From Actinacidiphila oryziradicis (GTDB lineage Bacteria; Actinomycetota; Actinomycetes; Streptomycetales; Streptomycetaceae): a stretch of 64,000 nucleotides of DNA. The translations under genes were made by a program, and so were the position numbers. Below the pieces are notes generated by a model that saw only the letters and a program-made list of their open reading frames with translations, was not told where the DNA came from and made no database searches. Positions 12,648 to 33,280 of the stretch are shown one piece after another; position 1 is the stretch's first letter; each line of letters begins with the position of its first letter. Where the stretch lies: NCBI RefSeq assembly GCF_005047355.1, contig NZ_SUMC01000041.1:1-64000 (forward strand). The letters are read 5' to 3'.

Positions 12648-12710
12648 GGACTCCTCCTCGTCTCGCACGGGCAGGAAACGGGAGGGGGCGCCGCACCTCC
12701 ACAAGGAGAA

Positions 12711-18039: not shown

Positions 18040-18179
18040 TATCACGCGTGGCGTCTTCGTTCGTCGACTGTTCCCCGCGTCTATTGAGGTGTCATCGGTT
18101 CACTTTCGTCCAGGGGGCAATTATGGATAAGGCCCAATTGGGCCAATAGTGGCTTCACGCCGAGCGCGGGAAACAGGCG

Positions 18180-18404
18180 TCAGGTCCGCTGGGCGGCGAA
18201 GAGCTCCAGATGTGCGCAGTTGGGGCAGCGGAAGGCGTCGACCTGCCAGCGCTGCTTGCCCATGCGTTTGGCGCCGCCGAGCGGGCCTCGCTCAAGGGGG
18301 CCTGCGATCCAGCGCGCGTACCCCTGTGCGCCTTGGCCGGAGTCCTCGACGAAGCCCTGCTCCAGTCCGACCACACCGCACTGGGTGCACCGTATGTTGT
18401 TCAT
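18180..18404 (-). CDS. Small zinc-ribbon protein
   Basis: A 74-residue protein with CTQCG at residues 6-10 and CPNC near residue 60, forming a four-cysteine zinc ribbon. Between them are the conserved GFVEDSGQGAQGYARWI and RWQVDAFRCPNCAHLELFA segments of a small Streptomyces family with no known function. It starts at ATG 18404. No operon partner is evident. Confidence 0.7.
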   Translation of the reverse strand: MNNIRCTQCGVVGLEQGFVEDSGQGAQGYARWIAGPLERGPLGGAKRMGKQRWQVDAFRCPNCAHLELFAAQRT

Positions 18405-18520
18405 CGGGGCAGCGCGGCCGGCCGGATCCGGGGCAAGGTCGTGCTCACTCCGACCCCCTGATACCCCGGCCCGGGCGCTGACCGCTGCGGTGGCACCGCG
18501 CCGGTGAAATGTCGAGACAC

Positions 18521-18856
18521 CCGAGAGCGACCCGTCGTCCGTCCTGCTGTACCTTCACGGCGGCGCGTACGCCCTCGGCTCGGCAGCCGACTCCGTAGGC
18601 CTGGCCGCCGACGTCGCCCGCCGCGCCGGCGCCCGCGTCATCTCGGTGGAATTCGTGGGCGAGTCCGCGGGCAGCGGCCTGGTCATAGCGACGCTTGTCG
18701 CGCTCAAGGCTGGCGGCTCGCGCCGCCGAGCAGGACGTGCCGGTCCAGTTGCAGGTCTGGCCGCAGGTCCCGCACGTCTTCCAGGGTTTCGCCGCGCTGC
18801 TCGACGAGGCCGACGCCGCCCTGCAGGCCGCCGCCGCCTTCACCCGGGCACACTGA
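18521..18856 (+). pseudogene. Alpha/beta hydrolase (HSL-type esterase) remnant
   Basis: Three blocks survive in order but not in one frame. An oxyanion block, SSVLLYLHGGAYALGSAAD, starts near 18530; a nucleophile block, VGESAGSGLVIATLVAL, lies near 18655-18705; a C-terminal block, PVQLQVWPQVPHVFQGFAALL, ends at the TGA 18854-18856 and contains the catalytic His. The segments between blocks 1 and 2 and between 2 and 3 are deleted, so the protein is not functional. Confidence 0.7.
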
Positions 18857-18903
18857 TCAGCCGGCTGACGGGATCCCCGGCTTCGCCATGACCCGGGATC
18901 CCG

Positions 18904-19686
18904 TCAGATCCTTGGCTGGCCGGTGGATGCGGTGGTGCCGCCATCGACCGGGAGCACGACTCCGGTGATGTACCGGGCCGCGTCGCTGGCAAGAAAGAGG
19001 ACGGCGGGTGCGACGTCTTCCGCATCTCCGATCCGGCCCAGAGCGATGCGGTCCTCGAACCGGGCAGCGAGCGTCGGATCATTCACGATGGCAGCGACAG
19101 GCTCGGTCTTGATGAGTGACGGGGCGACGGCATTCACCCGCACGCCGCGGCCGCCCCAGTCAAGGGCGAGCGAACGGACGAAATTCGACACCGCGGCCTT
19201 ACTGGCGTTGTAGACCGCCTGGTTCCAGTCACCGGCGAGGCCGGAGACACTACTCGTCGCGATGAACGAGCCGCCCGATACGGCCAGGTGCGGCAGGACG
19301 GTCTTCGCGAGGTGGAAGAAGCCGTCGACGTTGGTCCTCCGTAGGCCCTCCCAGCCGGAGGTGCTGACGTCGAGGATGTCGCCGGCAACGTAGCCCGCGG
19401 CGTTGCTGACCACGATGTCCAGCCGGCCAAAGCGCTCAAGGGTGCCATCGACAAGACGGGCCACGTCGTCAGGATCCCCGACGTCGGTCCGGATCGCGAC
19501 GGCACGCGACGCGGGCAGGGAAGCCACAGCGGCGTCCAGCTTGTCCTGCGACCGCCCGGCGATCACCACGGTCGCACCCGAGCGGGCGAACAGGTCAGCG
19601 ATGGCGTATCCGATTCCGGTTGCGCCGCCGGTTACGACAACGACCCTTCCGTCGAAATCAAAGGAGACATTAGAGTTTTCGGTCAT
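18904..19686 (-). CDS. SDR family NAD(P)-dependent oxidoreductase (FabG-like)
   Basis: A 260-residue classical SDR with TGGATGIG at about 20-27, SNAAG, the catalytic Ser of ATSSVSG, YNASK (YxxxK) and the C-terminal YITGVVLPVDGG seen in FabG-like enzymes. Substrate unknown. It lies downstream of the exopolysaccharide operon on the same strand (135 bases past the GH135 stop), but nothing ties it to that pathway. Confidence 0.87.
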   Translation of the reverse strand: MTENSNVSFDFDGRVVVVTGGATGIGYAIADLFARSGATVVIAGRSQDKLDAAVASLPASRAVAIRTDVGDPDDVARLVDGTLERFGRLDIVVSNAAGYVAGDILDVSTSGWEGLRRTNVDGFFHLAKTVLPHLAVSGGSFIATSSVSGLAGDWNQAVYNASKAAVSNFVRSLALDWGGRGVRVNAVAPSLIKTEPVAAIVNDPTLAARFEDRIALGRIGDAEDVAPAVLFLASDAARYITGVVLPVDGGTTASTGQPRI

Positions 19687-19821
19687 GATGCCGATGTCCT
19701 TCGTCCGAGGTGTTCGTCTGTCGTCCGAGGTATTCGTCTCTTGATGACCTGCCGCCCAATGCGACCTTTGGCTGCCGTGTTTCCAGAACTCCGTCGGTAA
19801 AACGTCCGGGAATCTATTTTT

Positions 19822-20487
19822 CTAGCCTGCGTGCAACGCCTCCGGCAGGGCGTCCCACGGATTGGCGCCGTCGCCGGTCACCGCGCAGTGCACGGCGGCG
19901 CCGCGCAGCCGGGCGGTACGGGCGGCCAGCCCGGACAGGCCGGCCGGGACGCCGTGGATGAGGTGACAGAAGCGCTCCGGCGGGTGATCCGCCGTCCACC
20001 CGGGTGTCCCGGCGCGGTGGTAGGTGTCCCAGCCGCCTTCGTATGTGACGAGCAGGTCGGCGATCCGGGCGTATCCGGGATCGGGGTGGACCCCCGGGTT
20101 GAGTACGACGGTGTGCGCGCCCAGCGTCCTGGCCTCGGCTGCCAGTCGCCGGTAATGCGGGACCAACTGCCCTTCGGCTGCGGCCTGGTCGAGGAAGAGG
20201 CCGTCGGTCCCGTACCACTGCCGGTGACGGCGCGCGTCGGCGACGATATCGCCGACGGGACGGTCTCCGTAGGCCGTGTCGACGTACCCGAGGACGCGGA
20301 TGCCCGCCGCGCGCAGCAGCTCGGCCGCGTCCGCGAAGGCCGGGTCGTAGGTGCTGCCCGGCCCGTCGGCGGCGTTGAGCACAACGCCGTAGAGCCGGGG
20401 AGCGGATCGGGCCAGGGCTTCCCAGGCGGCCGGATCCACCAGTGGGTGCACATAGAGCGGTACAAGCATGCTGCGGGTTTCCACCAT
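19822..20487 (-). CDS. Spherulin-4-like (GH135-type) glycosidase
   Basis: A 221-residue barrel protein of the spherulation-specific family 4. Conserved elements are MLVPLYVHPLVDPAAWEAL, VVLNAADGPG, GIRVLGYVDTAYGDRP, the acidic DGLFLDQAAAEGQL, VVLNPGVHPDP and DLLVTYEGGWDTY. The fungal family member Sph3 (GH135) hydrolyses alpha-1,4-N-acetylgalactosamine and is needed for galactosaminogalactan synthesis. No signal peptide is visible, so export or a cytoplasmic role is open. It is the last gene of the operon, 24 bases after the GH114 stop. The start has a weak ribosome site; ATG 20469 is an alternative. Confidence 0.82.
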   Translation of the reverse strand: MVETRSMLVPLYVHPLVDPAAWEALARSAPRLYGVVLNAADGPGSTYDPAFADAAELLRAAGIRVLGYVDTAYGDRPVGDIVADARRHRQWYGTDGLFLDQAAAEGQLVPHYRRLAAEARTLGAHTVVLNPGVHPDPGYARIADLLVTYEGGWDTYHRAGTPGWTADHPPERFCHLIHGVPAGLSGLAARTARLRGAAVHCAVTGDGANPWDALPEALHAG

Positions 20488-20511
20488 GGCACCGTACGCG
20501 TACGCCGTGGT

Positions 20512-21300
20512 TCAGCAGGGTTCGCGCCATGCGCCGAGGGCAGGCCGCTTCGCCATGGAGCTGAGGCGCAGCCGCCGTGACTGGGGGCAGAACTCGCGGG
20601 TGGGCACCGTGTATTCGACGTGGAAGACGGCCTTGTCCGCCCGTACGAACGGCTCCAGCGCCGCGCATTCGCCGTACTGGGCGCATTGCTCGTTGACCGC
20701 GAAGTCGAAGTCGCCGATCAGCCGCGGGATCTGCGCCAGGTCGTTCTTCAGCCCGACCGCGAGCCCGCGGTCGTGCGCCAGGCCGGCGATCATGCGGTTG
20801 TACGCGAGCTGGTCGGCGGCCGTCAGCGGGAAACCGGTGCGGTTGGTGTACGCGTCGGCCAGGTCGGGCTCGACGGCGTCGAAGCCCTTGGCGCGGCACA
20901 TGTCCAGCCGCTTGGCCATGAGCGGCCGGAGGACGTCGATACGGCGGATGTCCAGCCATCGTTCGCCGCTCCAGCCGTCCCCGCGCCCGCGTACCGAGGC
21001 GGGGAACGCATTGCGGTCGGGACGGAAGTCCTCCCAGGCGCCCGCGTTGATGTAGCAGATCACTTTGCGGCCCCTGGCGTGCAGCGCCGCCACGGTCGAG
21101 GCGCTGTTCTCGAAGCCGTCGATGTCGTACACGGGGACGTCGACATCCAGGTCGATCCGCCCGCTGAGCTGCCACTGCCAGGCGGTGCCCGGCCTGGGGC
21201 GCCATCGCCGGCCGCCGTCCGAACCGCCGCTTCCGGCGCATCCGACGAACGGCAGCAGGACCAGCAGCAAGGCCAGCAGCGGGGCGGCCCGCCGGATCAT
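20512..21300 (-). CDS. Lipoprotein GH114 endo-alpha-1,4-polygalactosaminidase
   Basis: A 262-residue enzyme. Residues 1-20 form a lipoprotein signal (LLLVLLPFVGCAGSG) that would anchor it outside the membrane. The rest is a GH114/TM1410-like barrel: TAWQWQLSGRID, VYDIDGFEN, GRKVICYINAGAWE, the acidic FDAVEPDLADAY, TNRTGFPLTAADQLAYNR, AVGLKNDLAQ and FAVNEQCAQYGEC. GH114 includes PelA hydrolase domains and fungal Ega3, which cut alpha-1,4-galactosamine chains. The ATG overlaps the stop of the upstream reductase (ATGA), proving it belongs to this operon. It probably trims or releases the polymer made by the cluster. Confidence 0.88.
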   Translation of the reverse strand: MIRRAAPLLALLLVLLPFVGCAGSGGSDGGRRWRPRPGTAWQWQLSGRIDLDVDVPVYDIDGFENSASTVAALHARGRKVICYINAGAWEDFRPDRNAFPASVRGRGDGWSGERWLDIRRIDVLRPLMAKRLDMCRAKGFDAVEPDLADAYTNRTGFPLTAADQLAYNRMIAGLAHDRGLAVGLKNDLAQIPRLIGDFDFAVNEQCAQYGECAALEPFVRADKAVFHVEYTVPTREFCPQSRRLRLSSMAKRPALGAWREPC

Positions 21301-22208
21301 TCCGCGGCCCCGGCCGGTGCGTCCACATCCGCACCCGCCTTCCACAGGTCGGCGAGCGAGACCGCCAGCGGCCGCTGCGGGCGCCAGGACAGCGCGGCCC
21401 GGGCCGCCGAGGTGTCCGCCTCCTGCCAGGAGACCGCCGCCGAGCGCGCCGAGCCTCCGCCCGTCTCCTCGATCCGGCCGCGGAACCCCGAGGCCGCGAC
21501 CAGGCCGTCGGCGACGGCCCGTACCGGGTTGGCCGTGCCGCTGCCGATGTTCAGGACGCGGGGGAGCGGGCCCGGCGCGGTGGCGGCCAGCGCGGCGGCC
21601 CGGGCCACATCCCGTACGTCCACGAAGTCCCGGTACGCGGACAGGTCGCCGACCCGCACCGTCCGGTCCGGGAAGGCCCGGCGCAGCTCGGCGGCGAGCC
21701 GCCCGGGGAGGCCGGTGGCGGGTGCGCCAGGCCCCACGGGGTTGAAGACCCGCAGCACCACCGCGTCCAGTGCCGATGAGGTGACCGCCAGCGTGCCGGC
21801 GAGTTTGGCGGCGCCGTACAAGCCGGCCGGCCGGGTGTCGCAGGACTCGGTGAGCGGTGTCCCCGCCGGGGTCGCCCCGTATTCGGCGGCCGACCCGAGG
21901 TGGACCAGCCGTACGGACGGGACGGCCGCCGCCAGTGCCTCGCAGAGCGCGGCCGGTCCGCGGGCGTTGGTCCCGGCCAGGTCCACCGGGCCGCCGCTGA
22001 CGGCCCCCGCGCAGTTGACGACGGCGTCGGGCGCGAGCTCGCGCAGGGCCCGGGCGAGCTCGGGGACGGCCGCGGTGGCCAGGTCGGCCGGCAGGTCGGC
22101 GCCGGGGGCGCGGCCGCCGCCGAGCAGCCGCACGCCCGGCAGGGCGCGCAGCTGCTCGGCGGTGTGCCGGCCCAGGAAGCCGGAGGCACCGAGGACGAGG
22201 ATGCGCAT
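21297..22208 (-). CDS. NAD-dependent epimerase/reductase (extended SDR)
   Basis: A 303-residue nucleotide-sugar SDR. The N-terminal MRILVLGASGFLGRHTAEQL binds NAD(P). HLGSAAEYG supplies the Ser and YGAAKLAG the Tyr/Lys pair. Its short, RmlD/Gmer-like build suits reduction of a 4-keto-6-deoxy sugar, the step after the 4,6-dehydratase encoded two genes upstream. The ATG at 22208 lies 10 bases after the nucleotidyltransferase stop and the stop overlaps the GH114 start. Exact sugar unknown. Confidence 0.82.
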   Translation of the reverse strand: MRILVLGASGFLGRHTAEQLRALPGVRLLGGGRAPGADLPADLATAAVPELARALRELAPDAVVNCAGAVSGGPVDLAGTNARGPAALCEALAAAVPSVRLVHLGSAAEYGATPAGTPLTESCDTRPAGLYGAAKLAGTLAVTSSALDAVVLRVFNPVGPGAPATGLPGRLAAELRRAFPDRTVRVGDLSAYRDFVDVRDVARAAALAATAPGPLPRVLNIGSGTANPVRAVADGLVAASGFRGRIEETGGGSARSAAVSWQEADTSAARAALSWRPQRPLAVSLADLWKAGADVDAPAGAAE

Positions 22209-22218
22209 GGCGGCGCCG

Positions 22219-22932
22219 TCACGCTCCCTTGAGAAGCAGGTCGCGGTGGGTGGTGAATTCGGCGTTGGCCCGGTCGTAGTCGTCCGGGCGGCCGATGTCG
22301 AGCCAGTAGCCGCCGAACTCGTAGGAGGCGGGCGGGGCGTCGGTCTTGAGCAGGTCCAGTACCAGGTCGTCGAAACCGAGCGGCAGCCCCGGGGTGTAGC
22401 CGGCGAGGGTGGCGCGGGAGATTCCGTACACACCCATCGACACCCGGTAGTCCATGGTGGGTTTCTCGATGAAGCCGGTCACCAGGCCGGACTCGGTGGT
22501 GAGCACTCCGAAGTCGATGTTCACCGGCCGGACGTAGGTCGCGATGGTCAGTGGCGCCCCGGACTCGTCGTGCCGGCGGAAGACGTCCCCGAAGTCCAGG
22601 TCGGTGAGTATGTCGCCGTTCATGACGAGGAAGTGCTCGGGCAGCCGGTCCAGCATGGTCAGCAGCGGCCCCATCGTGCCGAGCGGGCTGTCCTCCGTCG
22701 AGTAGCCGACCCGCAGACCCCACTGGGAGCCGTTGCCGACGTACGCGCGGATGATGTGTCCCAGATGTCCGATCGCGAGAGTGACCGTGGTGAACCCGGC
22801 GGCGGCCAGCTGCCGCATCACGATCTCCAAAATCGCGTGCTGGTCGCCGATCGGCACCAGCGGCTTGGGTAACGCGGTGGTGTACGGCATCAGTCGGACG
22901 CCTTTTCCGCCGGCCAGAATGACTGCGTGCAT
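22219..22932 (-). CDS. Sugar-1-phosphate nucleotidyltransferase
   Basis: A 237-residue nucleotidyltransferase. It has the signature AVILAGGKGVRLMPYTTALPKPL, the Lys of PKPLVPIG, VMNGDILTDLDF with the metal-binding Asp, VTGFIEKP and GGYWLDIGRPDDY. It lacks the left-handed helix or mannose isomerase domain of longer enzymes. It should activate a hexose-1-phosphate with NTP. Base and sugar cannot be read from sequence. It sits 16 bases after the 4,6-dehydratase and 10 before the reductase; the three together form a deoxysugar-nucleotide pathway. Confidence 0.87.
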   Translation of the reverse strand: MHAVILAGGKGVRLMPYTTALPKPLVPIGDQHAILEIVMRQLAAAGFTTVTLAIGHLGHIIRAYVGNGSQWGLRVGYSTEDSPLGTMGPLLTMLDRLPEHFLVMNGDILTDLDFGDVFRRHDESGAPLTIATYVRPVNIDFGVLTTESGLVTGFIEKPTMDYRVSMGVYGISRATLAGYTPGLPLGFDDLVLDLLKTDAPPASYEFGGYWLDIGRPDDYDRANAEFTTHRDLLLKGA

Positions 22933-22948
22933 GGGTGGCCCCCTGGTG

Positions 22949-23956
22949 TCAGATGTTGTAGATCGCGGTCTTGAACCGGGCGAGGTTCACCGGGTCGCGG
23001 AAGAAACCGATCGTTTGCTCAAGCCCCCGTTCCAGGCTGTGAGCCGGTGCCCAGCCGGTGGCGGCGCGCAGCCGGGAGGCGTCGCAGACCAGCCGCATCA
23101 CCTCGGAGTTCGCCGGCCGGATGCGCTGCACGTCCTCGGTCACGTCCAGCTCGACGCCCATCAGCTTGCCGATCAGGCCGACCAGTTCGCCGACCGAGAT
23201 CTCGCCGCCGGTGCCGGCGTTGAACGTGCGGCCGACGACGGCCTCGGCGGGCGCCGTGCCCACGGCGAGGAAGGCGGCGGCGGTGTCCTTCACATACGTG
23301 AAGTCACGGGTCGGCCGCAGATCGCCGAGCGTGATGATGCGCTCCCCGGCGGCGACCTGGCCGATCACCGTGGGGATGACGGCCCGCATGGACTGCCGCG
23401 GCCCGAAGGTGTTGAACGGGCGCAGAGTGACCACCGGGGTGCCGAAGCTCGCGTGGTAGCTGTCCGCCAGGCGGTCACCGCCCGCCTTTGAGGCGGCGTA
23501 CGGCGACTGGGTGTTGATCGGGTGGTCCTCGGTGATGGGGACGGTTCGCGCGGTGCCGTACGTCTCGCTCGTGGAGGTGTGCACCATGCGCGGGATCTCC
23601 AGGTGGCGCACGGCCTCCAGGACGTTGAGCGTTCCGGTGACATTGGTGTCGACGTAGGAGTGCGGCGCCCGGTAGGAGTACGGGATCGCGATCAGCGCCG
23701 CCAGGTGGTACACGGCCTCCGTACCGGCGACCAGTTCGTGGACGGAGCCGGGATCGCGTACGTCGCCGAGCACGACCTCGACGCTGTCCAGGACGTCGGG
23801 CGCCAGGTTCTCCAGCCAGCCGTAGGAGGAGAAGGAGTTGTACTGGGCCATCGCGCGCACCCGGTGGCCCGCGGCGACGAGCGCCTCGACCAGGTGCGAA
23901 CCGATGAAGCCTTCCGCGCCGGTGACGGCGACGGTGACAGGTGGGGGTGGGATCAC
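22949..23956 (-). CDS. LegB-type nucleotide-sugar 4,6-dehydratase/epimerase
   Basis: A 335-residue extended SDR. It has VTGAEGFIGSHLVEALVAAG, then AQYNSFSSYGWLENL, YHLAALIAIPYSY, the catalytic region TSTSETYGTA...SPYAASKAG, and RPFNTFGPRQS, in the order seen in LegB and related UDP-GlcNAc or GDP-mannose 4,6-dehydratases. In the pathway it would oxidise C4 and deoxygenate C6 of an activated hexose or N-acetylhexosamine. The fungal galactosaminogalactan cluster has a UDP-glucose 4-epimerase (Uge3) in this position; this protein is closer to the dehydratases, so the sugars may differ. Confidence 0.85.
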   Translation of the reverse strand: MIPPPPVTVAVTGAEGFIGSHLVEALVAAGHRVRAMAQYNSFSSYGWLENLAPDVLDSVEVVLGDVRDPGSVHELVAGTEAVYHLAALIAIPYSYRAPHSYVDTNVTGTLNVLEAVRHLEIPRMVHTSTSETYGTARTVPITEDHPINTQSPYAASKAGGDRLADSYHASFGTPVVTLRPFNTFGPRQSMRAVIPTVIGQVAAGERIITLGDLRPTRDFTYVKDTAAAFLAVGTAPAEAVVGRTFNAGTGGEISVGELVGLIGKLMGVELDVTEDVQRIRPANSEVMRLVCDASRLRAATGWAPAHSLERGLEQTIGFFRDPVNLARFKTAIYNI

Positions 23957-24005
23957 GTTCAGGTCTCCTGTGCGTGCGTGGGGGGATGGATGGGGGGATT
24001 GGGGA

Positions 24006-25901
24006 TCAGCGATGGGCTGTCGCCCGGCCGAGCAGGAAGTACGCGAGAGTGAGCAGCAGGACCGCCGACACGACGCTGACGGCGGACCGCAGGACCGCCG
24101 GGTCGGCCGTGGGGGCCGCCCTGGCGGTCTCGGCCAGGGCCGCGCCCAGGCAGACCGCCGCGGGCGGCCACGGGCTGCCGAACGCCTGGAGCAGCAGCGC
24201 CACCCAGAGGACGGCGCCCAACGCGACCGCCGCGACGAGTGACCGCGGCACGCCGTGCGGGGGGCCGCCCGGCCACAGCGCCCCGGCGACGGCGGCCAGA
24301 GCGGCGAGTACGGCGAGGTAGCCGGTCAGACACAGTGCCAGCGCGCCCCCTGCCCGGACCCGGAACCCCGCCGCCGTAGGGCTGCGCCGCAGCGCGGCCA
24401 GGCCGAGCCCCCGGTACCGGTACAGCAGCCACTCCGCCGCCCCCATGCTCAGCGCTAGCGCGGCCACGGCGTGCGCGTCCGCCGACGACCGGAGGATCAG
24501 CGCCCCGCTGCCCAGCCCGAACAGCCCGTACGGGACGGAGTCGGCCAACGCCGGGCCGGCCGTCGGCCGCGACTCGGGCTCACGACCTGGCGCACTACCC
24601 GGATCGCCCGAACGCGCACAGGAGACCAGCCTGAGCGCGTTCCGTCGCCTCGCGATCAAAGCCGAGACGGAGGCCCGGGCCGAAGCCGTGAGCGAAGCCG
24701 CCCGAGGCCGCAGGCTGGTCCACTGCCTTTCGTGCGCCTGGCTGTTCCCGGCGGCGGCCTTTCCTGGGCCGGTCCGCCGGGCCCGCACGATCGCGGGGCC
24801 GGCCGCGGCGAGCGCGCCCGCCAGCGAGGCGATGAGCAGCCCGGTGCGCAGGACGTCCGGCAGCAGGGCGCCGGCCGCGGTCGGTGCGAGCGCCAGCAGC
24901 AGGAGGCGCTCCCGCCCCAGCACCAGCAGCACGGTCGCCGCCGCCAGATACACCGCCTGCCCGGCGGCGAAGACCGATACCGCCCCGGGGCCGGACAGGA
25001 CGAGCGAGACGCAGGTCGCGCCCGCCGCCCCCGCCGGGGCACCCAGCAGCAGAGCGCCTGCCATGGACCGGCGGTCGCCCAGGCCCAGCCATACGTACGC
25101 ACGGTGGGCCAGCGCCTGATTCCACGCCCAGGCGAACAGGGCCGACGCGCCCAGCGCAGTCGTCCCCGCCGCCCTGCCCGCCAGCAGCGGGGCCGCCAGC
25201 ACATACCCCAGCCCCGGCAGCGCGAAGACCACCCCGCGCAGTACGCACCGCCACGGATCCGCCCGCCAGGGATCGGCCACCGGCCCGGCGTCGGGGAAGC
25301 GGCGCGGCACTCGCGCGTACAGTTCCTGGGCGACCTCGAACAGGTCCTGCCGCCCGTATCGCCGTTTGATCTGCTCCTCGGCCAGCCCGTCCGACTCCAG
25401 CACGGCCGCGATCTCGTCCGGGTGCACCGCCGCTCCGCAGACGTCCGCCAGCCGCTCCGCCAGTTCGTCGAGCGGGTCCGTGGCCCATGACGGTCTCGGG
25501 GCCTGTCCGGCCGCTGCGGCTGATATGCCTCCCCCGGCTGCTACCGCTGGGAGGTGCCCCCAGTTGCGGCGTGGCCGTGGCGTCGTGTGCCCTGGCACCA
25601 GCGCTCGCGGCGTTGTCGTCGGTCGACGACTCTCTCCCGGACTCCGTCCGGGAGGTGCTCCCACCAAGCTCTCGGCTCCGCTCGAGCAGGGGGCACACCC
25701 CATCGCGTCGCCTCCTCCCCCAGGCTCCGGCCGCGAGGTGCCGCCACCTCCGCCCGCTCCCTGCGATTCACAGGCACCAGACCCCGCTCCTTCCTCCACG
25801 GACGGCCGGACAGGCCCCGCGGCCGGCCGCGGCAGGAAGGGCAGGGCGCCCTCGTCGCCTTCTGTCGTCAGTTTTTTGACCAGGTGCAGCGGCCCGCTCA
25901 T
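24006..25901 (-). CDS. Polytopic membrane protein, candidate polysaccharide exporter (PelG position)
   Basis: A 631-residue protein whose start overlaps the GT4 stop (ATGA). After a short start (1-36) comes a Gly/Pro-rich stretch (about 37-138) that is a dispersed repeat read in frame. A helical soluble domain follows (about 140-210, DELAERLADVCGAAVHPDEIAAVLESDGL...YGRQDLF), then about 11-12 hydrophobic segments. A second segment of unusual codon use (about residues 380-440) divides the helices into two groups. Without the two inserts it would have about 470 residues, near PelG size (12 helices), and it follows the PelF-like gene as PelG does. No residue motif proves homology; flippase/export role is inferred. 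Confidence 0.6.
   Translation of the reverse strand: MSGPLHLVKKLTTEGDEGALPFLPRPAAGPVRPSVEEGAGSGACESQGAGGGGGTSRPEPGGGGDAMGCAPCSSGAESLVGAPPGRSPGESRRPTTTPRALVPGHTTPRPRRNWGHLPAVAAGGGISAAAAGQAPRPSWATDPLDELAERLADVCGAAVHPDEIAAVLESDGLAEEQIKRRYGRQDLFEVAQELYARVPRRFPDAGPVADPWRADPWRCVLRGVVFALPGLGYVLAAPLLAGRAAGTTALGASALFAWAWNQALAHRAYVWLGLGDRRSMAGALLLGAPAGAAGATCVSLVLSGPGAVSVFAAGQAVYLAAATVLLVLGRERLLLLALAPTAAGALLPDVLRTGLLIASLAGALAAAGPAIVRARRTGPGKAAAGNSQAHERQWTSLRPRAASLTASARASVSALIARRRNALRLVSCARSGDPGSAPGREPESRPTAGPALADSVPYGLFGLGSGALILRSSADAHAVAALALSMGAAEWLLYRYRGLGLAALRRSPTAAGFRVRAGGALALCLTGYLAVLAALAAVAGALWPGGPPHGVPRSLVAAVALGAVLWVALLLQAFGSPWPPAAVCLGAALAETARAAPTADPAVLRSAVSVVSAVLLLTLAYFLLGRATAHR
24585..24750. 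repeat. Foreign-codon segment inside the membrane-protein gene
   Basis: Read on the minus strand, codons here use many A/T-ending or rare forms (GAA, AGG, CCT, GCT, TTG, CGA, TGT, AGT, CCA), unlike the gene on both sides. The encoded peptide (HERQWTSLRPRAASLTASAR...) is hydrophilic between hydrophobic helices. It looks like a second inserted repeat; I see no other copy in the window. Confidence 0.4.
25505..25790. repeat. Dispersed repeat (copy B) within a coding sequence
   Basis: This segment aligns with 55766-55965: CGGCyGATATGCC, GGCGTGGCCGTGGCG, CGTTGTCGTCGGTCGACGA and CCACCTCCGCCC...CTCCCTGCG occur in the same order. It also shares the GTCGGTCGACGACTCTC...ACTCCGTCCGGGAGGTG block with 526-563. 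The other two copies are intergenic. Here it is read in frame through the membrane-protein gene as about 100 Gly/Pro/Ala-rich residues. Confidence 0.7.
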
Positions 25902-27388
25902 CGTCGGCCTCCCGCGATCGCCTCGTACTGGAACGCCGGTTCCGCAGCCCGCAGGCCGGCCGCCGGCTCCGCGGTGAGGTCGCCGTAGATGGCGCGGAAG
26001 GCGTCGATGGTCTGGCGCAGGGTGAACTGCTCGATCACCCGGAGCCGGGCGGCCTCGCCCATCGCCAGGCGGCGTGCCGGGTCCCGCAGCAGTTCCAGCG
26101 CGGCCGCGGCCATGGCCTTGGGCTCACGCGGGGGGACCACCAGTCCTGTGTCGCCGACCGCTTCGCGGACGCCTCCGACGTCCGTCGAGACGGTGGGCCT
26201 GGCACAGGACATGGCCTCGATGAGGGTGAACGGGAAACCCTCGCTGATGCTGGAGAGCATCACCACGCTGCCCGCCGCGTAGGCGTCGCGGATGTCCGGC
26301 ACCCGGCCCTCGAAGACCACGGCGTCGGCGACGCCCAGTTCGGTGGCGAGCGCCTCGCACCGCTCGCGGTAGGCCTCGCCGCCGCGCGGGGTGCCCCCGA
26401 ACAGCCGTAGCCGGGCCTCGGGGACCTCGTGCCGGACCAGGGCGAACGCACGGATCAGGGTCTCCAGGTCCTTGATCGGGTCCACCCGGCCGGCCCAGGT
26501 GAGGGTCGGCAGTCGCGGCTCGGGGCCGGCCGGCGGGAAGGCGCTGGGGTCGACGCCGTTGTAGACGGTGCGGATGCGTTCGGGCGGGGTGCCGCCGTGC
26601 TCCTCCCAGCGGCGGTTGTAGCGGTTGCCGGGGGTGACCAGGTCCGCGCGGGTGTATATCTCCTCGGCGAGCAGCCGGAAGAAACCGAGCAGGAGGGCCT
26701 TGACCGGCCAGCTGTAGGGGCCCGTCCGGTAGCCGAGATAGCGTTCGCGCAGGTAGACGCCGTGCTCGGTGAGCAGCAGCGGCGTGCCGTGCCAACGCTT
26801 GGCCACCAGCCCCGGCAGGGCGGCCAGGCCGCCGCTGACGGCGTGCGACACGCCCCCCTCGCGGAGGACCGCCGCCAGCGGGCGCAGCGCGTGTTCGAGC
26901 AACTCGGTGGCGGTGAGCGCGTCGTGCAGGGTGGGGCGGGCGGCGGAGGCGGCGATGTTCGGTCGGCGCCAGACGTCCGCGAGGAGGCGTACCGCGGCCT
27001 CCGAGCGCAGTGCGGCGGCCAGCGATCCCCGCCGCGCGTGCCCGGCCATCGCGTACAGCGCGGTCGGGAAGCGCGGTTCCTCCTGCGGGTCGAGCAAGGA
27101 CAGCAGGAACTGCTCGTACATGGCCAGAAAGGCCCTGCGGTGCTTCCCTTTGGGGGCCCGGCCCTGCGGCACGGGCCCCCAAAGGGGGAGCGACCTCACG
27201 TCATGGACGTTGGCGGGCAGCTTCCAGGCGAGCGGTTCCTGGCCGCTGCCCGTGATCGCGACGACCCGGAAGTCGACGTCGGGCATGCCCTCGACCAACT
27301 GGTCGCACCACACGCTCACCCCGCCGAGGCTGTGCGGATACGTTCCTTCGGTGAGCAGGGTCACCGTGGAGCGGAGTGGTTTGTCCAT
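25898..27388 (-). CDS. PelF-like GT4 glycosyltransferase
   Basis: A 496-residue cytoplasmic glycosyltransferase. The N-terminal TLLTEGTYPHSLGGVSVW and the later LLTEHGVYLRER match PelF, the GT4 enzyme thought to polymerise Pel from UDP-GlcNAc/GalNAc. The C-terminal Rossmann half has VYNGVDPSAF and the donor-site motif EGFPFTLIEAMSCARPTV (EX7E). Fungal Gtb3 of the galactosaminogalactan cluster contains a related GT4 domain. It starts 50 bases after the deacetylase stop and overlaps the membrane-protein start. Expected to build the polymer backbone on the inner face. Confidence 0.88.
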   Translation of the reverse strand: MDKPLRSTVTLLTEGTYPHSLGGVSVWCDQLVEGMPDVDFRVVAITGSGQEPLAWKLPANVHDVRSLPLWGPVPQGRAPKGKHRRAFLAMYEQFLLSLLDPQEEPRFPTALYAMAGHARRGSLAAALRSEAAVRLLADVWRRPNIAASAARPTLHDALTATELLEHALRPLAAVLREGGVSHAVSGGLAALPGLVAKRWHGTPLLLTEHGVYLRERYLGYRTGPYSWPVKALLLGFFRLLAEEIYTRADLVTPGNRYNRRWEEHGGTPPERIRTVYNGVDPSAFPPAGPEPRLPTLTWAGRVDPIKDLETLIRAFALVRHEVPEARLRLFGGTPRGGEAYRERCEALATELGVADAVVFEGRVPDIRDAYAAGSVVMLSSISEGFPFTLIEAMSCARPTVSTDVGGVREAVGDTGLVVPPREPKAMAAAALELLRDPARRLAMGEAARLRVIEQFTLRQTIDAFRAIYGDLTAEPAAGLRAAEPAFQYEAIAGGRR

Positions 27389-27438
27389 GGCTGCTGGTCC
27401 GTTCTCCCCGGGAGCGGAATGCGGTTGCCGGCCTCAGC

Positions 27439-29619
27439 TCAGCGCTGTCCGGCGGCGGTGGCCGGCTGAAACGGCACCGGGTCCGAGGCACCGGCGGGCA
27501 CCGGCAGCCTGTGTGCGGGCGCCGGCACGGTCACGTCCGCCGTTGTGGCGGAGGCGGCGACCGCGGCGGGCGTGGCCGAGGACGCCAAGGTCAGGCTGAC
27601 GTCGCTCTGCAGATCGCCGGGGGCCGTCCATCCGGAAAGCAGGCCGGCGTAGGAAGTGCCGAAGGCGCTGTCGCCCAGCGCGAGCGACTGCGTGGTGCCG
27701 GCGGGCATGGTGGCGATGGCCGGGACGCCGTCCGGGGCGCTGATGGTGACTGCGGAGCCGATGCGGTACGCGGTGACCTGCCCGGCCTTGAGGGCCGCCT
27801 TCCACGTGGCGCGGTGCTGCAGCTCGGTGGCGGTGTCCTGCATCCGCAGGTTGACGATCGGTGTGTTGTCCGCGAAGAGGTTCTGGTAGTCGCCGAGGAT
27901 CTTCTCCAGCAGCGGGTACGCGATGCGGTCCTCGGCGAAGTTCGACTGGTGGATGTAGTGCGGCAGCGGGTCGTTGCCCAGCACGTGGTCCAGCGCGGTC
28001 CGGCTCTCCAGCGGAACGATGTACGAGGCGTAGCCGGTGCTCGTGTCCAGCGGGGCGGACAGGCAGGTGGACGTGGTGGACGTCTCGCAGGTGCCGCTGC
28101 CGCCGTTGGCCACACTAGTGTAGATCCAGTTGTACTCGTCCACCTCCTCGTTCGTCCGGCCGGCGTTGTAGAAGACGTTCATGGGGTGGCGCGGCACGGT
28201 CAGCGCCGAACCGGCCGCGCGCTGTTCGGATTCCCGCGAGGCGTCACTGGCCAGGGCGGTCACTCCGTTGGCGGCGAGCGCGGGGGCGAGGTTGGGATTG
28301 TCCTCCGGCTGCTGCGGCAGGATCTTCAGCCCGGAGTGCTCACCGGTGACCAGTTCGCCGGTGTCGAGGCTGATCCCGTTCGCCGCCGCCCAGTCGGTGT
28401 TCTGGGTGATCTGCGAGCTGATGTCGGACTCGCTCACCCACTGTGTCGCACCGGAAGCGTCGGTGGCGCACTTCCAGGGCACGACGGTGACGTCCTGGAC
28501 GCAGCCGAGGAAGGGGTGGTTGTAGGTGTGGTCGACCCACCGGTAGGTGTCCTTGCCGGCGATCAGTTGTTGTGCCAGCGGGTCGGTGCCGCCGTTCGCG
28601 GCCACGTAGTCCGCGCTGCCGCCGCCGTTGAACACCAGGTCCAGGGTCATCCCGTGCGCCTTCGACCACTGCGTCGCGTACTGCGCGTCGGCCGCGGTCA
28701 TGCGGATCGGGTTGGCGTCGTCGCCGGTGCCCGCGGGGCAGTCGATGTCGCCCGGAGTGCAGTTGAGCTCGGTGTTCCAGCGGTCGTCGCCGAGGAAGAC
28801 GTCATCGACGTGCACCGAGAAGTAGTTGCGGTCGGCGCCCAGATGGATACCCTGGGTCATCCACTCCACCATGCCCCGCACCAGCAGCCTGAACTGCTGC
28901 TGGTACTGGTTGTACACGAAGGTGACGACCAGCTCGCTGCGCCCGTCGTGGTCGTACTCGCCGATGAGCGAGCCGCTCCCGGAGCCCCCGGGAATGGGCG
29001 CCCCGACGTACTCGGTGAAGGTGGCGCCGGCCGCCTGCTGCGCCAGCGGCACAGCCAGATAGCCGTAACTCTCGGACACCGTGGTGGAGTTGTCCTCGAA
29101 CGGGACGCTCCCTTTGAGGTAGCCGAAGGGGCCCGCGGTCCCGGCGGGAGTGACCTCGGCGGTGGTGCCGTCCAGCGAACCGATGTAGCCGGGGTTCTGT
29201 GCGTAGTTCAGCCCGACCTCGGGCCTCGCGTAGGTGTAGGCGTCGACCTGCCGGATGCCGAAGGACTGCTCATACGAGGTCAGCGCGGTCATCTCCGCCG
29301 ACCCGCTGCCGAACGGGCTGTCGTTCGGCACCACCACGGCTTGGTACTTCGCCCGGGGCCGTCCGTCGACGGTGTCGCTGAGAAAGCTCGCGGTGATCTG
29401 CGGGCGGGCGGCATCGGTGAGATCTACGCGCGTATACGGTGAGCCTGAGGCGTCCAGTTCGGCGGTAATCGCCCCGGTGGCCGGGCCGCCGTCGTCGACG
29501 ACGAGGATCTGCAGGTCTATTCGGGGGGTCGACGCGGTATCGGCGTGTGCGGCCGGTGACGCGGCGACCAGCAGTAATGCGGCAACGCAGGCCTCTGCGG
29601 CTCTGGCTGTCCAGCCCAT
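27439..29619 (-). CDS. Secreted Agd3-like (CE18) polysaccharide deacetylase
   Basis: A 726-residue exported protein, first gene of the operon. The signal peptide ends SPAAHA (about residue 27). Residues about 35-290 correspond to the N-terminal carbohydrate-binding region of fungal Agd3 (ILVVDDGGPATGAITAEL..., EQSFGIRQVDAY). The deacetylase domain follows with the metal/catalytic Asp motif YFSVHVDDVFLGDDRW, a DLVFNGGGSADY strand, HTYNHPF (HxxxH) and later ELVTGEHSGL, ending in a beta-rich tail. Agd3 removes acetyl groups from N-acetylgalactosamine in galactosaminogalactan. The ATG at 29619 has AAGGAGA 6 bases upstream and directly precedes the signal peptide. No lipobox, so it is probably released or wall-associated. 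Confidence 0.83.
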   Translation of the reverse strand: MGWTARAAEACVAALLLVAASPAAHADTASTPRIDLQILVVDDGGPATGAITAELDASGSPYTRVDLTDAARPQITASFLSDTVDGRPRAKYQAVVVPNDSPFGSGSAEMTALTSYEQSFGIRQVDAYTYARPEVGLNYAQNPGYIGSLDGTTAEVTPAGTAGPFGYLKGSVPFEDNSTTVSESYGYLAVPLAQQAAGATFTEYVGAPIPGGSGSGSLIGEYDHDGRSELVVTFVYNQYQQQFRLLVRGMVEWMTQGIHLGADRNYFSVHVDDVFLGDDRWNTELNCTPGDIDCPAGTGDDANPIRMTAADAQYATQWSKAHGMTLDLVFNGGGSADYVAANGGTDPLAQQLIAGKDTYRWVDHTYNHPFLGCVQDVTVVPWKCATDASGATQWVSESDISSQITQNTDWAAANGISLDTGELVTGEHSGLKILPQQPEDNPNLAPALAANGVTALASDASRESEQRAAGSALTVPRHPMNVFYNAGRTNEEVDEYNWIYTSVANGGSGTCETSTTSTCLSAPLDTSTGYASYIVPLESRTALDHVLGNDPLPHYIHQSNFAEDRIAYPLLEKILGDYQNLFADNTPIVNLRMQDTATELQHRATWKAALKAGQVTAYRIGSAVTISAPDGVPAIATMPAGTTQSLALGDSAFGTSYAGLLSGWTAPGDLQSDVSLTLASSATPAAVAASATTADVTVPAPAHRLPVPAGASDPVPFQPATAAGQR

Positions 29620-30010
29620 GGTGTCTCCTTCTCCGGTTCTCCGGGAGGTTGGCTGCGGCAGGCCGCTGCCGCACTCCCCTGTGTAACGCCTATGGAATTC
29701 CCATGTAATGCCTATGGACTTGGACATGACAATCCTTCGGCTGGACGTGCCCGACGTTGTCGTCCGCTGCCCCGCCATATCTTCCAGGGTGGTGCGGATG
29801 TTCTGTAGAGCTTCTGTTGAGTTGGCTGAATGATGTCTGCCGCTGTTTTCCTTCCGTACGGTCAGATTTACGTTGCCGTAACAAAAACGCCGGGACGTAT
29901 GGCCGGTGAAACAGCGACGCCCGCCGCTGCGAATCGGCTCACCCGTATCGTGCCGATCCCATCGTCCGACGGGAAGTTGGCCCCACAACCGTCCATACGC
30001 CGACGGCGTG
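29620..30010. other. Upstream region of the exopolysaccharide operon
   Basis: About 390 bases without a supported gene. The stretch 29690-29900 is markedly richer in A/T than its surroundings, consistent with a promoter reading leftward into the deacetylase gene. I cannot define -35/-10 boxes with confidence. Confidence 0.45.
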
Positions 30011-30331
30011 ATGGAACAGCGGATGGTGAACGGCCAGAGTCGGGCGTCGGCGGTCGCCGGGCACCTGCGGTGGACTCACGACCTGCTCGGCAGCCTTCCC
30101 CTCCCGGCTGAACGCCGGGACGAGCTGCGGTCCCGGCTCCGTGCGGTCCAAGCGCGCGCCGCCCGGTGCCTTCGGCCGGATCAGGATGCGGGCGGCACTC
30201 GGGCAGGGCTCCATCTCCCCGGCCGCAGAGCGGGCCCGGTGCACGCAGCGGTTGACGTCATGAATAGGCCCCCGAAGCACCGTTCATTTTCGGCCAGGAT
30301 GCCGCCTGTCACATATTATGATCACTCCTGA
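30011..30331 (+). CDS. Hypothetical protein (doubtful)
   Basis: A possible 106-residue product starting MEQRMVNGQSRASAVAGHLR. The first 60 codons are GC-ending and predict helices (HDLLGSLPLPAERRDELRSRLRAVQARAARCL), but the last 35 codons look random and there is no clear ribosome site. It may be a truncated or false gene. Confidence 0.25.
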   Translation: MEQRMVNGQSRASAVAGHLRWTHDLLGSLPLPAERRDELRSRLRAVQARAARCLRPDQDAGGTRAGLHLPGRRAGPVHAAVDVMNRPPKHRSFSARMPPVTYYDHS

Positions 30332-30724
30332 TGGTTCTTGCCCAGAGATTGGGCGCTTTGCTCTGACCATTCGGTTGGATCAGCTCGCCGGGCGAGTCGC
30401 GTGCTACACGGTGTCGGCCGGCCCTGTCCGTACGGCGGACGGCCGCCAGGCGCGGCGCCGGCACGGTCGTGGCGCCCGGGATGGCGGGTCCGGCCTGGGG
30501 CCCGGCGACGCTTGAAACAATCTCGCGGGATCGCTTGACCACGGGGCAAATCGGAGTAATCGTAGGAAATAGGACCGGTCAACCACGACAGGGCCTTGCA
30601 AGAGGCACCTGCCGGGTACCGGCCAGGTTCCCGGCGGCTTCTGATATACGCGACGAGTTGTTCAGAAAATTCCGGGAACCGCCCTTTGGGACGGCCTCCT
30701 TTTGAACGACCTCCGAAGAAGACC
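30332..30724. other. Intergenic, no gene recognised
   Basis: No frame has a convincing start or codon use. The 3' end approaches the terminator of the convergent DUF2267 gene. Confidence 0.45.
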
Positions 30725-30763
30725 ACACGTAGGGCCCGGGTCAAGCACCCGGGCCCTACGTGT
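30725..30763 (-). terminator. Hairpin terminator of the DUF2267 unit
   Basis: A perfect 17-bp stem (ACACGTAGGGCCCGGGT and its complement) with loop CAAGC, 18 bases past the DUF2267 stop. Confidence 0.85.
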
Positions 30764-30781
30764 CGCTCCGGAGGCGGCGGC

Positions 30782-31210
30782 CTACGGCAGCAGGGCTGCC
30801 AAATCCCTCGGGACGGTGGATTTGATGTCCTCCCACTCACCTTCACTGACGTGGGGGCTCAGGGCCCGCAGTACCGTGCGGACGAGCGGCTCCGTGCCGC
30901 CCTCCACCGTGTAGGGGAACTCGTGCCGCACCCGGGCGAGGAACTCGTCCCTGTCCATCTTCACGGGCACGCGGCTCGGGTCCCAGCCCTCGTAGTAGAT
31001 GCCTCGTACAAGCATCGGCAGCTGCGCGCCGAGCTGTGCGATTTCTTCGACCGTCAGGCGGTCCCGGAGCTGATGGAGGACGGCTCGCAGAGCCGCGTAC
31101 GACATGTTCCGGAGCTCTTTCGGCCATCCGTAGGCCTCTTCGATCTGCCTGAGTATCCGATTGGTTTTGTCCACCGTCGTGTTGAACGATGCGAATCCCG
31201 TCTCGGCCAT
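30782..31210 (-). CDS. DUF2267 family protein
   Basis: A 142-residue cytoplasmic, mostly helical protein. The conserved DUF2267 features are present: ALRAVLHQLRDRLTVEEIAQLGAQLPMLVRGIYYEGW and, near the end, LRALSPHVSEGEWEDIKSTVP. Function is unknown; in actinobacteria such genes often accompany stress genes. ATG 31210 follows AGGAAGGA. It is 50 bases downstream of the phosphoribosyltransferase-esterase fusion and likely shares its transcript. Confidence 0.85.
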   Translation of the reverse strand: MAETGFASFNTTVDKTNRILRQIEEAYGWPKELRNMSYAALRAVLHQLRDRLTVEEIAQLGAQLPMLVRGIYYEGWDPSRVPVKMDRDEFLARVRHEFPYTVEGGTEPLVRTVLRALSPHVSEGEWEDIKSTVPRDLAALLP

Positions 31211-31260
31211 GGGCTCGGTCCTTCCTGGAGAAGCGGGGGTTTCGGGGAAGCACGGTCCGC

Positions 31261-33279
31261 TCAGAGCGCGAACGGGTAGGTCTCGGGCACCTCGCCCGAC
31301 TCCCACCCGGGGGTGCGCTCCAGCGGCTCCACCGCCCGGGTCTCGTCGATGTGGATCACGGCGTCGAACTGGTCGGCCATCCGTACCCGGAAGTAGTGGC
31401 TCTGCCGCTCGGTCTCCGGGCGGTAGATGACGCCGATGGCCCGCTCCAGCTTCGCCGCACGCAGTGCCTCCGCTACCCGCGGCGCACGGTCGAACGGGAT
31501 CAGGAACTCCTTCTGGGCGGCCTCGTGGAACAGCTCCTCGACGCTGTCGGCCAGTGCCGGGCGCACCGCCTTTCGTTCGGCCGGCCCTCCCCAGTCGTCG
31601 GCGGCGGTCACTGTGCCGGCGTGCGTGGTGAAGCCCAGGAGGCGGCAGTCGCCGGGGTGTCCCTCGCGTACGAGCTGGCCGACGTTGAGCTCGCCCCGGG
31701 ACGCGGCCTCCGTGGCCCGGGCGTCACCGAGATGCGAATTGTGCTCCCAGACCACGATCTTCGCGGGCCCGCCCCGCTGCTGACCGAGGTGGTCCGCCAG
31801 CGCGTCGAGGGTCTCGGCCATGTGCCGGTCGCGCAGATTCCAGGAGGAGACCTGGCCGCCGAACATCATGCGGTAGTAAGTCGCCGCGTCCCGCACCGTG
31901 CGCGCGTTCTGCTCGGCGTAGAAGAGATCGTCCTCGGCGAGAAGTCCGTCCTGCCGCGCGTACTCCACCGCGTGCCGCCGCAGGTCGACCAGCTGCTCGA
32001 CCACTTCCCGCTCGCAGGTCTCGCCCGCTCCGAAGGCCGCCTCGAAGCCCCAGGCCTGCGCGTCGTCCTCGCCGCGGTAGTGGTCGAAGCAGGCGTACCG
32101 CTCACGGGCGCGAGCCGCGGCCTGCGGATCGACGTGGTCCAGGTAGGAGATGACCTCGTCGATCGACCGGTACAAGCTGTAGACGTCGAGTCCGTAGAAG
32201 CCCGCCTTGGCCCGCTCGTCGGGACGGTGCCGGTCGTTGTGCTCCCGGAGCCAGCCCACGAAGTCGAGTACGGCGGTGTTCCGCCACATCCAGGTCGGGA
32301 AGCGTTCAAATCCGCGCAGTGCCTCCTCGGCAGCGGCGTCGTCGCTGCTGCGACCCCGGACGAACCGGTTCACCCGGTAGGCGTCCGGCCAGTCGGCCTC
32401 GGCCGCCACGGCGCAGAACCCCTTCTCCTCGATGAGGCGCCGGGTCATGTGCGCACGAGCGGCGTAGAACTCGTGGGTGCCGTGCGACGCTTCGCCGATC
32501 AGCACGAAGTGCGCGTCGCCCACCAGGGCGAACAGCGCTTCGTCGCTGGGCACGCCGTCCTCGACCGGCAGCGCCTCGGCCCGGATGAGGGCCACCTCCG
32601 TCAGACCCCCGTCGTCCGCTGAAACGCGGCTCGTCCTCGCCGCCGCCCGCAGGAGGTCCCGCACTTCCTCATCCGTCGTCTGGGTGAAGTCCCAGTACGA
32701 CTCGCCCACCGCGACGAACGGCGACGGCGTCGTGGCGCACACCACCTCGTCCACCGTGCCGGCCAGCTCCTCACAGGTCACCCCGGGCGCGGCGGGCACC
32801 GCGACGACCAGGCGCGCCGGCCGGTGACGGCGCAGGGCTCCGATGGCGGCCCGCATGCTCGCGCCGGTCGCGAGGCCGTCATCGACCAGGATGACCGTCC
32901 TGCCCTCCAGCTCCGGCGAGGGGCGCCCCTCGCGGTAGGCCTGCTCCCGTCGCAGCAACTCCCGGCTCTCGTGCTCGGCCACCCGCCGGATGGCCTCCGG
33001 CGGGATGTCCAGGCCACGGATGACGTCGTCGTTGAGCACCGCCACCCCGCCGTCGGCGATCGCCCCCATCGCCACCTCTTCACGGCCCGGGACACCGAGC
33101 TTGCGGACCAGGAAGATGTCGAGCGGGGCACCGAGCGCCATGGCGACCTCGTAGGCCACCGGCACACCGCCGCGCGGCAACCCCAGCACAATGACCGCCG
33201 GGTCGCCCGAGTAGTGCTCAAGAAGCCCGGCCAGGCTCCGGCCGGCGTCCCTTCGGTCCCGGAACAGACGAACCGCCAT
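31261..33279 (-). CDS. Phosphoribosyltransferase-erythromycin esterase fusion protein
   Basis: A 672-residue two-domain protein. Residues about 1-215 are a type I phosphoribosyltransferase: [16 protein letters not shown] and the PRPP-binding [14 protein letters not shown]. Residues about 230-672 match the erythromycin esterase (EreA/EreB) fold: [18 protein letters not shown] with catalytic Glu/His, [10 protein letters not shown] and [13 protein letters not shown]. Such fusions occur in Streptomyces and may not act on macrolides; resistance should not be assumed. One base separates it from the preceding small gene, so the 33634-30782 genes form one unit. Confidence 0.87.
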
Positions 33280-33280
33280 C

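What the first reader, a model, noticed from the sequence alone, without database searches (positions are those of the whole stretch)
19822..29619. Bacterial operon assembling the families of the fungal galactosaminogalactan cluster
Eight closely spaced minus-strand genes (two ATGA overlaps, gaps of 10-50 bases) encode an Agd3-like CE18 deacetylase, PelF-like GT4, polytopic membrane protein, LegB-type dehydratase, sugar nucleotidyltransferase, SDR reductase, lipoprotein GH114 and spherulin-4/GH135. In Aspergillus the galactosaminogalactan cluster contains a 4-epimerase (Uge3), Sph3 (GH135), Gtb3 (GT4), Ega3 (GH114) and Agd3 (CE18): four enzyme families are the same, and an SDR sugar enzyme fills the fifth place. 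Bacterial Pel shares GT4, GH114 and a deacetylase but has no GH135. The inferred product is a partly deacetylated, cationic alpha-1,4-linked aminosugar polymer, possibly with a 6-deoxysugar. This would be a hyphal adhesin or biofilm matrix, and perhaps a relative of the ancestor of the fungal pathway.
Basis: partly seen in the sequence, partly recalled or inferred. Interest (0 to 1): 0.9.

Follow-up and report, generated by a model that had tools for sequence, protein, structure and literature searches.

The report
Bacterial operon resembling fungal GAG cluster
Eight adjacent bacterial genes look like a machine for making a sticky, positively charged sugar polymer; it resembles the fungal galactosaminogalactan cluster, a resemblance already published in general, but this version carries its own pathway for what is probably an unusual 6-deoxy sugar.

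Summary
Eight minus-strand genes (19822-29619) encode an Agd3/CE18-type deacetylase, a PelF-type GT4, a membrane protein with a MOP-exporter-like fold, a LegB-type dehydratase, a sugar nucleotidyltransferase, an SDR, a lipoprotein GH114 and a GH135. The fungal parallel is real but in print: Bamford et al. 2020 (PMC7229062) described bacterial Agd3 operons with a GT, a membrane protein, GH114 and, in some Actinobacteria, spherulin-4. The CE18 gene is common: 89 of 199 genomes of one genus of the window's family.

What I did not find in print is the modularity. CE18-PelF-membrane protein-GH135-GH114 occurs with no sugar gene, with GalE (one locus), or, as here, with LegB-NTP-SDR (59 of 80 loci, always all three). 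The trio is also on Deinococcus plasmids, there without GH135. Its GMD-like TSE signature and the lack of an aminotransferase make a GDP-6-deoxy-HexNAc the likeliest product. PelF is the operon's only glycosyltransferase. GH135 lacks a signal peptide and is probably cytoplasmic, unlike fungal Sph3.

In a small tree the fungal GH114 groups with Pseudomonadota, not with this operon. New variant of a known kind.

The parts
27439..29619 (-). Agd3-like deacetylase (CE18 fold with CBM87-like N-domain), secreted by its N-terminus; D272 D273 H364 H368 H557 invariant
25898..27388 (-). PelF-type GT4 glycosyltransferase, the only glycosyltransferase in the operon
   Evidence: NF038011 186.3 bits over cut-off 100; DUF3492 207.4 bits
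24006..25901 (-). multispanning membrane protein with MOP-superfamily-like (MATE/Wzx/MurJ) fold and a small helical N-domain; probable polymer exporter
22949..23956 (-). LegB-type NDP-sugar 4,6-dehydratase, GMD-like TSE...YxxxK signature
   Evidence: TIGR04180 452.3 bits (cut-off 475); TSE aligned to TDE of DesIV 1r66; signature in 60 of 60
22219..22932 (-). sugar-1-phosphate nucleotidyltransferase
   Evidence: PF00483 120.3 bits; best PDB relative mannose-1-phosphate guanyltransferase beta 7d72, E 2e-27
21297..22208 (-). SDR, probable NDP-4-keto-6-deoxysugar reductase
   Evidence: PF01370 124.3 bits; best PDB relative GDP-6-deoxy-D-lyxo-4-hexulose reductase 2pk3, E 1e-19; Y and K of YxxxK in 59 of 60
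20512..21300 (-). GH114 endo-galactosaminidase-type lipoprotein
   Evidence: PF03537 283.8 bits; Ega3 6oj1 E 8e-54; lipobox LPFVGC by eye; overlaps SDR by 4 nt
19822..20487 (-). GH135 (spherulin-4), no signal peptide, catalytic Asp and Glu kept
   Evidence: PF12138 116.3 bits; Sph3 5c5g E 1.9e-14; catalytic D and E in 69 of 69 rows

Best explanation
The operon makes, exports and matures a cell-surface, partly de-N-acetylated (cationic) hexosamine polymer of the GAG/Pel type. PelF polymerises in the cytoplasm, the MOP-fold protein carries the chain across the membrane, the secreted CE18 enzyme removes acetyl groups outside, and the lipoprotein GH114 trims the deacetylated chain at the cell surface. 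In this variant a dedicated trio (nucleotidyltransferase, 4,6-dehydratase, 4-keto-reductase) makes an NDP-, probably GDP-, linked 6-deoxy-HexNAc such as FucNAc or QuiNAc, which PelF, the operon's only glycosyltransferase, builds into the chain. GH135 works on the cytoplasmic side, clearing or sizing nascent acetylated chains. Shown: families, the CE18 fold and a MOP-like fold, conserved order, trio always complete in the 80 loci, no GH135 signal. Inferred: polymer, linkage, monomer, nucleotide, and the roles of the MOP-like protein and GH135.
For: Conserved order in 59 of 80 loci with the trio always complete. Agd3 match along all three domains and catalytic residues in 81 of 81. PelF above its curated cut-off. 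GH114 close to Ega3. MOP-like fold. TSE signature in 60 of 60, which PMC8987622 Table 1 (passages) lists for GDP-Man 4,6-dehydratase, while GalE has no acid/base pair; C. jejuni LegB acts on GDP-GlcNAc (PMC7439481 passage); best PDB relatives of the other two trio members are GDP-sugar enzymes. No aminotransferase in the operon, so the 2-N-acetyl remains for CE18. The core occurs with GalE (L124), with no sugar gene (L126, L128, Kocuria) or with the trio, also in four Deinococcus plasmids where LegB is 66-68% identical with TSE kept: consistent with exchangeable sugar supply. GH135: 56 of 63 copies have no usable start further upstream and 0 of 63 a hydrophobic N-terminus, against signal peptides in two Pel-linked GH135. 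Weak: PelF column 254 separates 67 trio from 13 non-trio rows.
Against: I read no chemistry on any bacterial CE18 operon. LegB is below the curated cut-off of its model and its own best PDB relative is a dTDP-glucose dehydratase. Nucleotide (GDP or UDP) and C4 configuration are not fixed by sequence. One trio cluster, Deinococcus grandis (L178), has no SDR. PelF column 254 is post hoc: 3 of 182 clade partitions, the true one counted, give as many separating columns. UDP-GalNAc from elsewhere in the genome could still be the main donor. A working cytoplasmic hydrolase beside the synthase is odd and could mean that GH135 is not hydrolytic here; the residue after its catalytic Asp is R or Q in 67 of 69 rows, Glu in Sph3. 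The MOP-like match is at fold level only.
Confidence: 0.55

Rival explanations
1. The main chain is ordinary alpha-1,4-GalNAc/GalN made from UDP-GalNAc supplied elsewhere in the genome, and the trio adds a minor 6-deoxy co-monomer, cap or primer.
For: Some clusters make do without any sugar gene; GH114 and CE18 are families known on GalN/GalNAc polymers (PMC7229062, PMC12054363 passages).
Against: Only one glycosyltransferase in the operon; the trio is complete in 59 of the 59 loci among 80 that hold any of it, which fits a main donor better than a trace one.
Confidence: 0.27
2. The locus is catabolic: it degrades fungal galactosaminogalactan or Pel from neighbours.
For: A secreted deacetylase and surface GH114 could act on foreign polymer.
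Against: PelF, a MOP-fold protein and sugar-nucleotide synthesis in the same tight operon; GH135 not secreted; no importer among the eight genes.
Confidence: 0.05
3. PelF decorates another surface polymer or lipid and the hydrolases remodel that.
For: GT4 enzymes have many acceptors (general knowledge); the polymer has not been shown.
Against: PelF family above cut-off and repeated co-occurrence with CE18, GH114 and GH135, three families whose studied members act on galactosaminans.
Confidence: 0.1

Closest known systems
Fungal galactosaminogalactan cluster (Uge3, Sph3, Gtb3, Ega3, Agd3), Aspergillus
   Same: CE18 deacetylase, GH114, GH135 and a glycosyltransferase (GT4 by recall) in one cluster
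   Different: No GalE-type epimerase here but a LegB-NTP-SDR trio; GT and membrane protein are separate genes, Gtb3 being described as an integral membrane GT; GH135 lacks a membrane anchor or signal
Bacterial Agd3-homologue operons (Bamford et al. 2020, PMC7229062)
   Same: GT, multispanning membrane protein, Agd3 homologue, GH114, spherulin-4 in some Actinobacteria: this operon belongs to that described set
   Different: The section and passages I read do not mention a 6-deoxysugar trio, its exchange with GalE, a cytoplasmic GH135 or plasmid copies; figures and supplements were not seen
Pel operons (pelABCDEFG; Gram-positive pelDEADAFG)
   Same: PelF, a polytopic membrane partner, a deacetylase and a hydrolase of related fold
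   Different: No PelD, PelE or PelB among the eight genes; membrane protein not recognisable as PelG; PelA hydrolase is GH166

Membership tests
CE18 (Agd3) | three-domain Agd3 fold | tested here: met
CE18 (Agd3) | CM1 Asp-Asp and CM2 HxxxH metal/base residues | tested here: met
   D272, D273, H364, H368 in 81 of 81, assigned by motif and order; no residue-level superposition was printed
CE18 (Agd3) | curated Pfam Agd3_CE cut-off | tested here: not met
   window protein no match at E<=10; 14 of 15 in the set match; five close homologues scanned score 18.5-27.1 bits, cut-off 27.6
CE18 (Agd3) | deacetylates alpha-1,4-GalNAc polymer | not testable with these tools
   needs enzyme assay
GH135 (Sph3) | Pfam Spherulin4 above cut-off and catalytic Asp/Glu | tested here: met
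   116.3 bits, cut-off 30.2; D and E 69 of 69 rows
GH135 in the Sph3 role | extracellular catalytic domain on a membrane anchor | tested here: not met
   protein begins at barrel strand 1; 38 of 63 copies start in a 4-nt overlap with the preceding gene, 56 of 63 have no further start, 0 of 63 a hydrophobic N-terminus; no signal-peptide program was run
GH114 (Ega3) | Pfam GH114 above cut-off | tested here: met
   283.8 bits, cut-off 27
PelF | NCBIfam NF038011 above cut-off | tested here: met
   186.3 bits, cut-off 100
PelG | recognisable PelG sequence | tested here: not met
   PF16933 not among matches of 15 members up to E 10; hhalign probability 0.1% (only 3 PelG rows); a shared MOP-type fold is not excluded
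LegB (TIGR04180) | model cut-off | tested here: not met
   452.3 against 475 bits
Fungal GAG cluster | UDP-sugar 4-epimerase in the cluster | tested here: not met
   SDR 56.9 bits against GalE cut-off 262.3; met in relative L124 (336.1 bits)
Fungal GAG cluster | glycosyltransferase and membrane part in one protein (Gtb3) | tested here: not met
   separate ORFs with a 4-nt overlap; no fusion among the best 120 of a joined query
Pel operon | PelD and PelE in the operon | tested here: not met
   none among the eight genes; the rest of the genome was not searched for PelD or PelE

The most novel reading that the evidence does not exclude
A widespread exopolysaccharide class of streptomycetes and Deinococcus in which the galactosaminogalactan machine has been re-fed: a dedicated GDP-6-deoxy-HexNAc pathway replaces UDP-GalNAc, giving a cationic 1,4-linked poly-6-deoxyhexosamine (FucN/FucNAc or QuiN/QuiNAc). 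In the actinobacterial form a GH135 hydrolase works inside the cell at the synthase as a length- or stall-control enzyme, and the polymer cassette, with exchangeable sugar module, travels on plasmids.
Probability: 0.3. Interest if true: 0.72.

Novelty: new variant of a known kind. Interest (0 to 1): 0.45.

Why it matters
Streptomyces cell walls are reported to hold low levels of galactosamine-containing polysaccharide, and S. griseus secretes a galactosaminidase (PMC7229062 Discussion passage); the passages I read assign no genes to either. This operon, whose CE18 gene is in 89 of 199 sampled genomes of one genus of the family, is a testable candidate. If the trio feeds the chain, it would be a polymer of a medically studied class (GAG, Pel) with a different monomer, and the natural exchange between GalE and the trio would let donor choice by PelF be studied by comparison. 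A cytoplasmic GH135 would give a clean way to test why these synthases go with a hydrolase.

Tried and rejected
Tried without result: PDB sequence search with the CE18 protein and its profile found nothing, until the structure comparison. A joined PelF+membrane-protein query to find natural fusions such as Gtb3 returned only 491-565 aa PelF proteins among its best 120, so a link of the membrane protein to the membrane part of Gtb3 is untested. hhalign of the membrane protein with PelG found nothing, with only three PelG rows. Rfam on 18000-33500 gave only three sub-threshold animal miRNA models, so no riboswitch was seen. A BldD-like pattern (my own, from memory) was in 3 of 81 upstream stretches and not in the window's; recurring upstream words in other loci were not followed. 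No relative of PelF was confirmed in viral contigs (close relatives only).

Considered and rejected: catabolic locus (synthesis genes in the same operon); SDR as Uge3 equivalent (far under GalE cut-off); special kinship with the fungal cluster (GH114 tree: Ega3 and a second GH114 structure with 3 Pseudomonadota rows, 98/95; partial sequences, one of the two 'fungal' rows, 9ep6, taken to be the Fusarium enzyme without check and on a long branch: a weak negative). CE18 and GH135 trees with fungi were not made because no full fungal sequences were obtained.

Counts and rows left out: the tool kept 80 of 181 CE18 loci. Of the 80, 61 had 7.5 kb or more of downstream room; the other 19 were counted apart. 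GH135 starts were chosen nearest to the window's start, then checked for upstream alternatives. The 69 GH135 rows leave out one cut-off copy (L075) and include one second, non-operon GH135 of L124. The PelF tree used 12 of 59 trio loci and 8 five-gene or related loci of the 80. 'Other', unlabelled and the three Pel rows were left out of the partition control. Deinococcus L178 was labelled trio although it lacks the SDR.
Full report

Spread. A scan of genome contigs with the CE18 protein gave 181 loci, 80 kept, all Streptomycetaceae by record title. Of the 61 with 7.5 kb or more downstream, 44 have CE18-PelF-MEM-LegB-NTP-SDR-GH135-GH114, 9 the same without GH114, 1 without both hydrolases, 6 have CE18-PelF-MEM-GH135-GH114 with no sugar genes, and 1 only CE18-PelF-MEM. 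Over all 80, the three sugar genes occur in 59 and always together. CE18 matches at E 0.001 or better in 21 of 61 relatives, 27 of 394 genomes of the class and 89 of 199 genomes of one genus of the family, weak and fragment matches included. The window's own genome has a second operon (L123), with the trio but no GH135 found.

Beyond the family the core appears with different sugar genes: GalE-PelF-MEM-GH135-GH114 with a divergent CE18 in L124 (GalE 336 bits, cut-off 262), which holds all the fungal enzyme families; the trio in L127; none in L126 and L128 (in L128 the membrane protein is assumed from its place, a 442-aa ORF that tblastn does not match); NTP-SDR-NDP-sugar dehydrogenase-dehydratase in L129. 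Among plasmids the core sits on Streptomyces californicus linear plasmids with the trio. On four Deinococcus plasmids it has LegB (66-68% identity, TSE kept) and NTP, with the SDR in three of four and no GH135 match. On a Thermus plasmid PelF and CE18 occur without the trio. On a mobilizable Kocuria rosea plasmid CE18-PelF-MEM-GH135-GH114 lies between two identical inverted 944-nt copies of an insertion sequence. On a PelF tree of 37 rows the trio label needs 4 changes, of which starred branches force at least 2. So the sugar module was gained, exchanged or lost more than once.

What the trio makes. LegB has T-S-E followed by YxxxK in 60 of 60 sequences; aligned with DesIV, TSE takes the place of T-D-E. 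PMC8987622 Table 1 (passages) gives [ST]SE for GDP-mannose 4,6-dehydratase, [ST]DE for dTDP- and retaining UDP-GlcNAc types, DK forms for others and no acid/base pair for GalE; it has no row for LegB. C. jejuni LegB dehydrates GDP-GlcNAc (PMC7439481 passage). The best PDB relatives of the other two are mannose-1-phosphate guanyltransferase beta and a GDP-4-keto-6-deoxysugar reductase; LegB's own best PDB relative is a dTDP-glucose dehydratase. Each hint is weak; together they favour a GDP-6-deoxy-HexNAc. There is no aminotransferase in the operon, so the 2-acetamido group that CE18 would attack stays. PelF is the only glycosyltransferase in the operon. One PelF column (254) is G or A in 67 of 67 trio rows and C or V in 13 of 13 non-trio rows, but 3 of 182 comparable clade partitions, the true one counted, reach as many separating columns, so this is only a lead.

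GH135. The catalytic pair is kept in 69 of 69 rows. Of 63 copies in the 80 loci, 38 start in a 4-nt overlap with the preceding gene, 56 have no start further upstream that would overlap it by 20 nt or less, and none has a hydrophobic stretch at the N-terminus; L124, L127 and L128 look the same. By contrast the GH135 genes of two PelG-bearing genomes (G454, G482), about 3 kb from PelG, have clear signal peptides by eye and the Asp-Glu of Sph3, whereas 67 of 69 rows have Asp-Arg or Asp-Gln. This argues for a cytoplasmic role here. GH135 is rare in the phylum sample (7 of 296 genomes).

Relation to fungi. In a GH114 tree of 54 rows, Ega3 and a second structure (9ep6, taken to be the Fusarium enzyme) group with Burkholderia, Vibrio and Pseudoalteromonas (98/95), not with the operon GH114. 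The best bacterial match to Ega3 in that set is Burkholderia (225 bits, 55% identity); the best operon copy has 201 bits, 49%.

Literature. PMC7229062 (abstract, section 13, passages) reports Agd3 homologues in 45 bacterial species, operons with GT, membrane protein and GH114, spherulin-4 in some Actinobacteria operons, and operons 'containing most, or all' GAG genes. The core of the finding is therefore known. In Gram-positive Pel loci galE is an accessory gene thought to supply UDP-GalNAc (PMC7112168 passages). I found no mention of the trio, the GalE exchange or a cytoplasmic GH135 in searches (open-licence PMC papers only, mostly judged from listings; supplements and figures not seen).

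Noticed in passing
L167 1663-10999 (NZ_CP126484.1, Kocuria rosea plasmid): Five-gene CE18-PelF-MEM-GH135-GH114 cluster between two identical inverted 944-nt insertion-sequence copies on a mobilizable plasmid; looks like a composite transposon, no target duplication established. No other record of the plasmid collection holds it at high identity.
   Followed up: partly
   Followed up: partly
window 19822-21300: GH114 comes before GH135 here, whereas in the 44 complete trio loci GH135 comes first.
   Followed up: no
L179, L180 (G454, G482): Secreted GH135 of about 500 aa with a long C-terminal part, about 3 kb from PelG.
   Followed up: partly
L123 and L141 (G000:C379 and C223): The window's genome has a second trio operon without GH135 and a third GH114 gene elsewhere.
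   Followed up: partly
window 31261-33279: Fusion of a phosphoribosyltransferase domain with an erythromycin-esterase domain upstream of the operon.
   Followed up: no
window 7874-12704: A ricin-B lectin plus alginate lyase protein and two CBM4_9 proteins in a row, another carbohydrate locus about 7 kb downstream of the operon.
   Followed up: no
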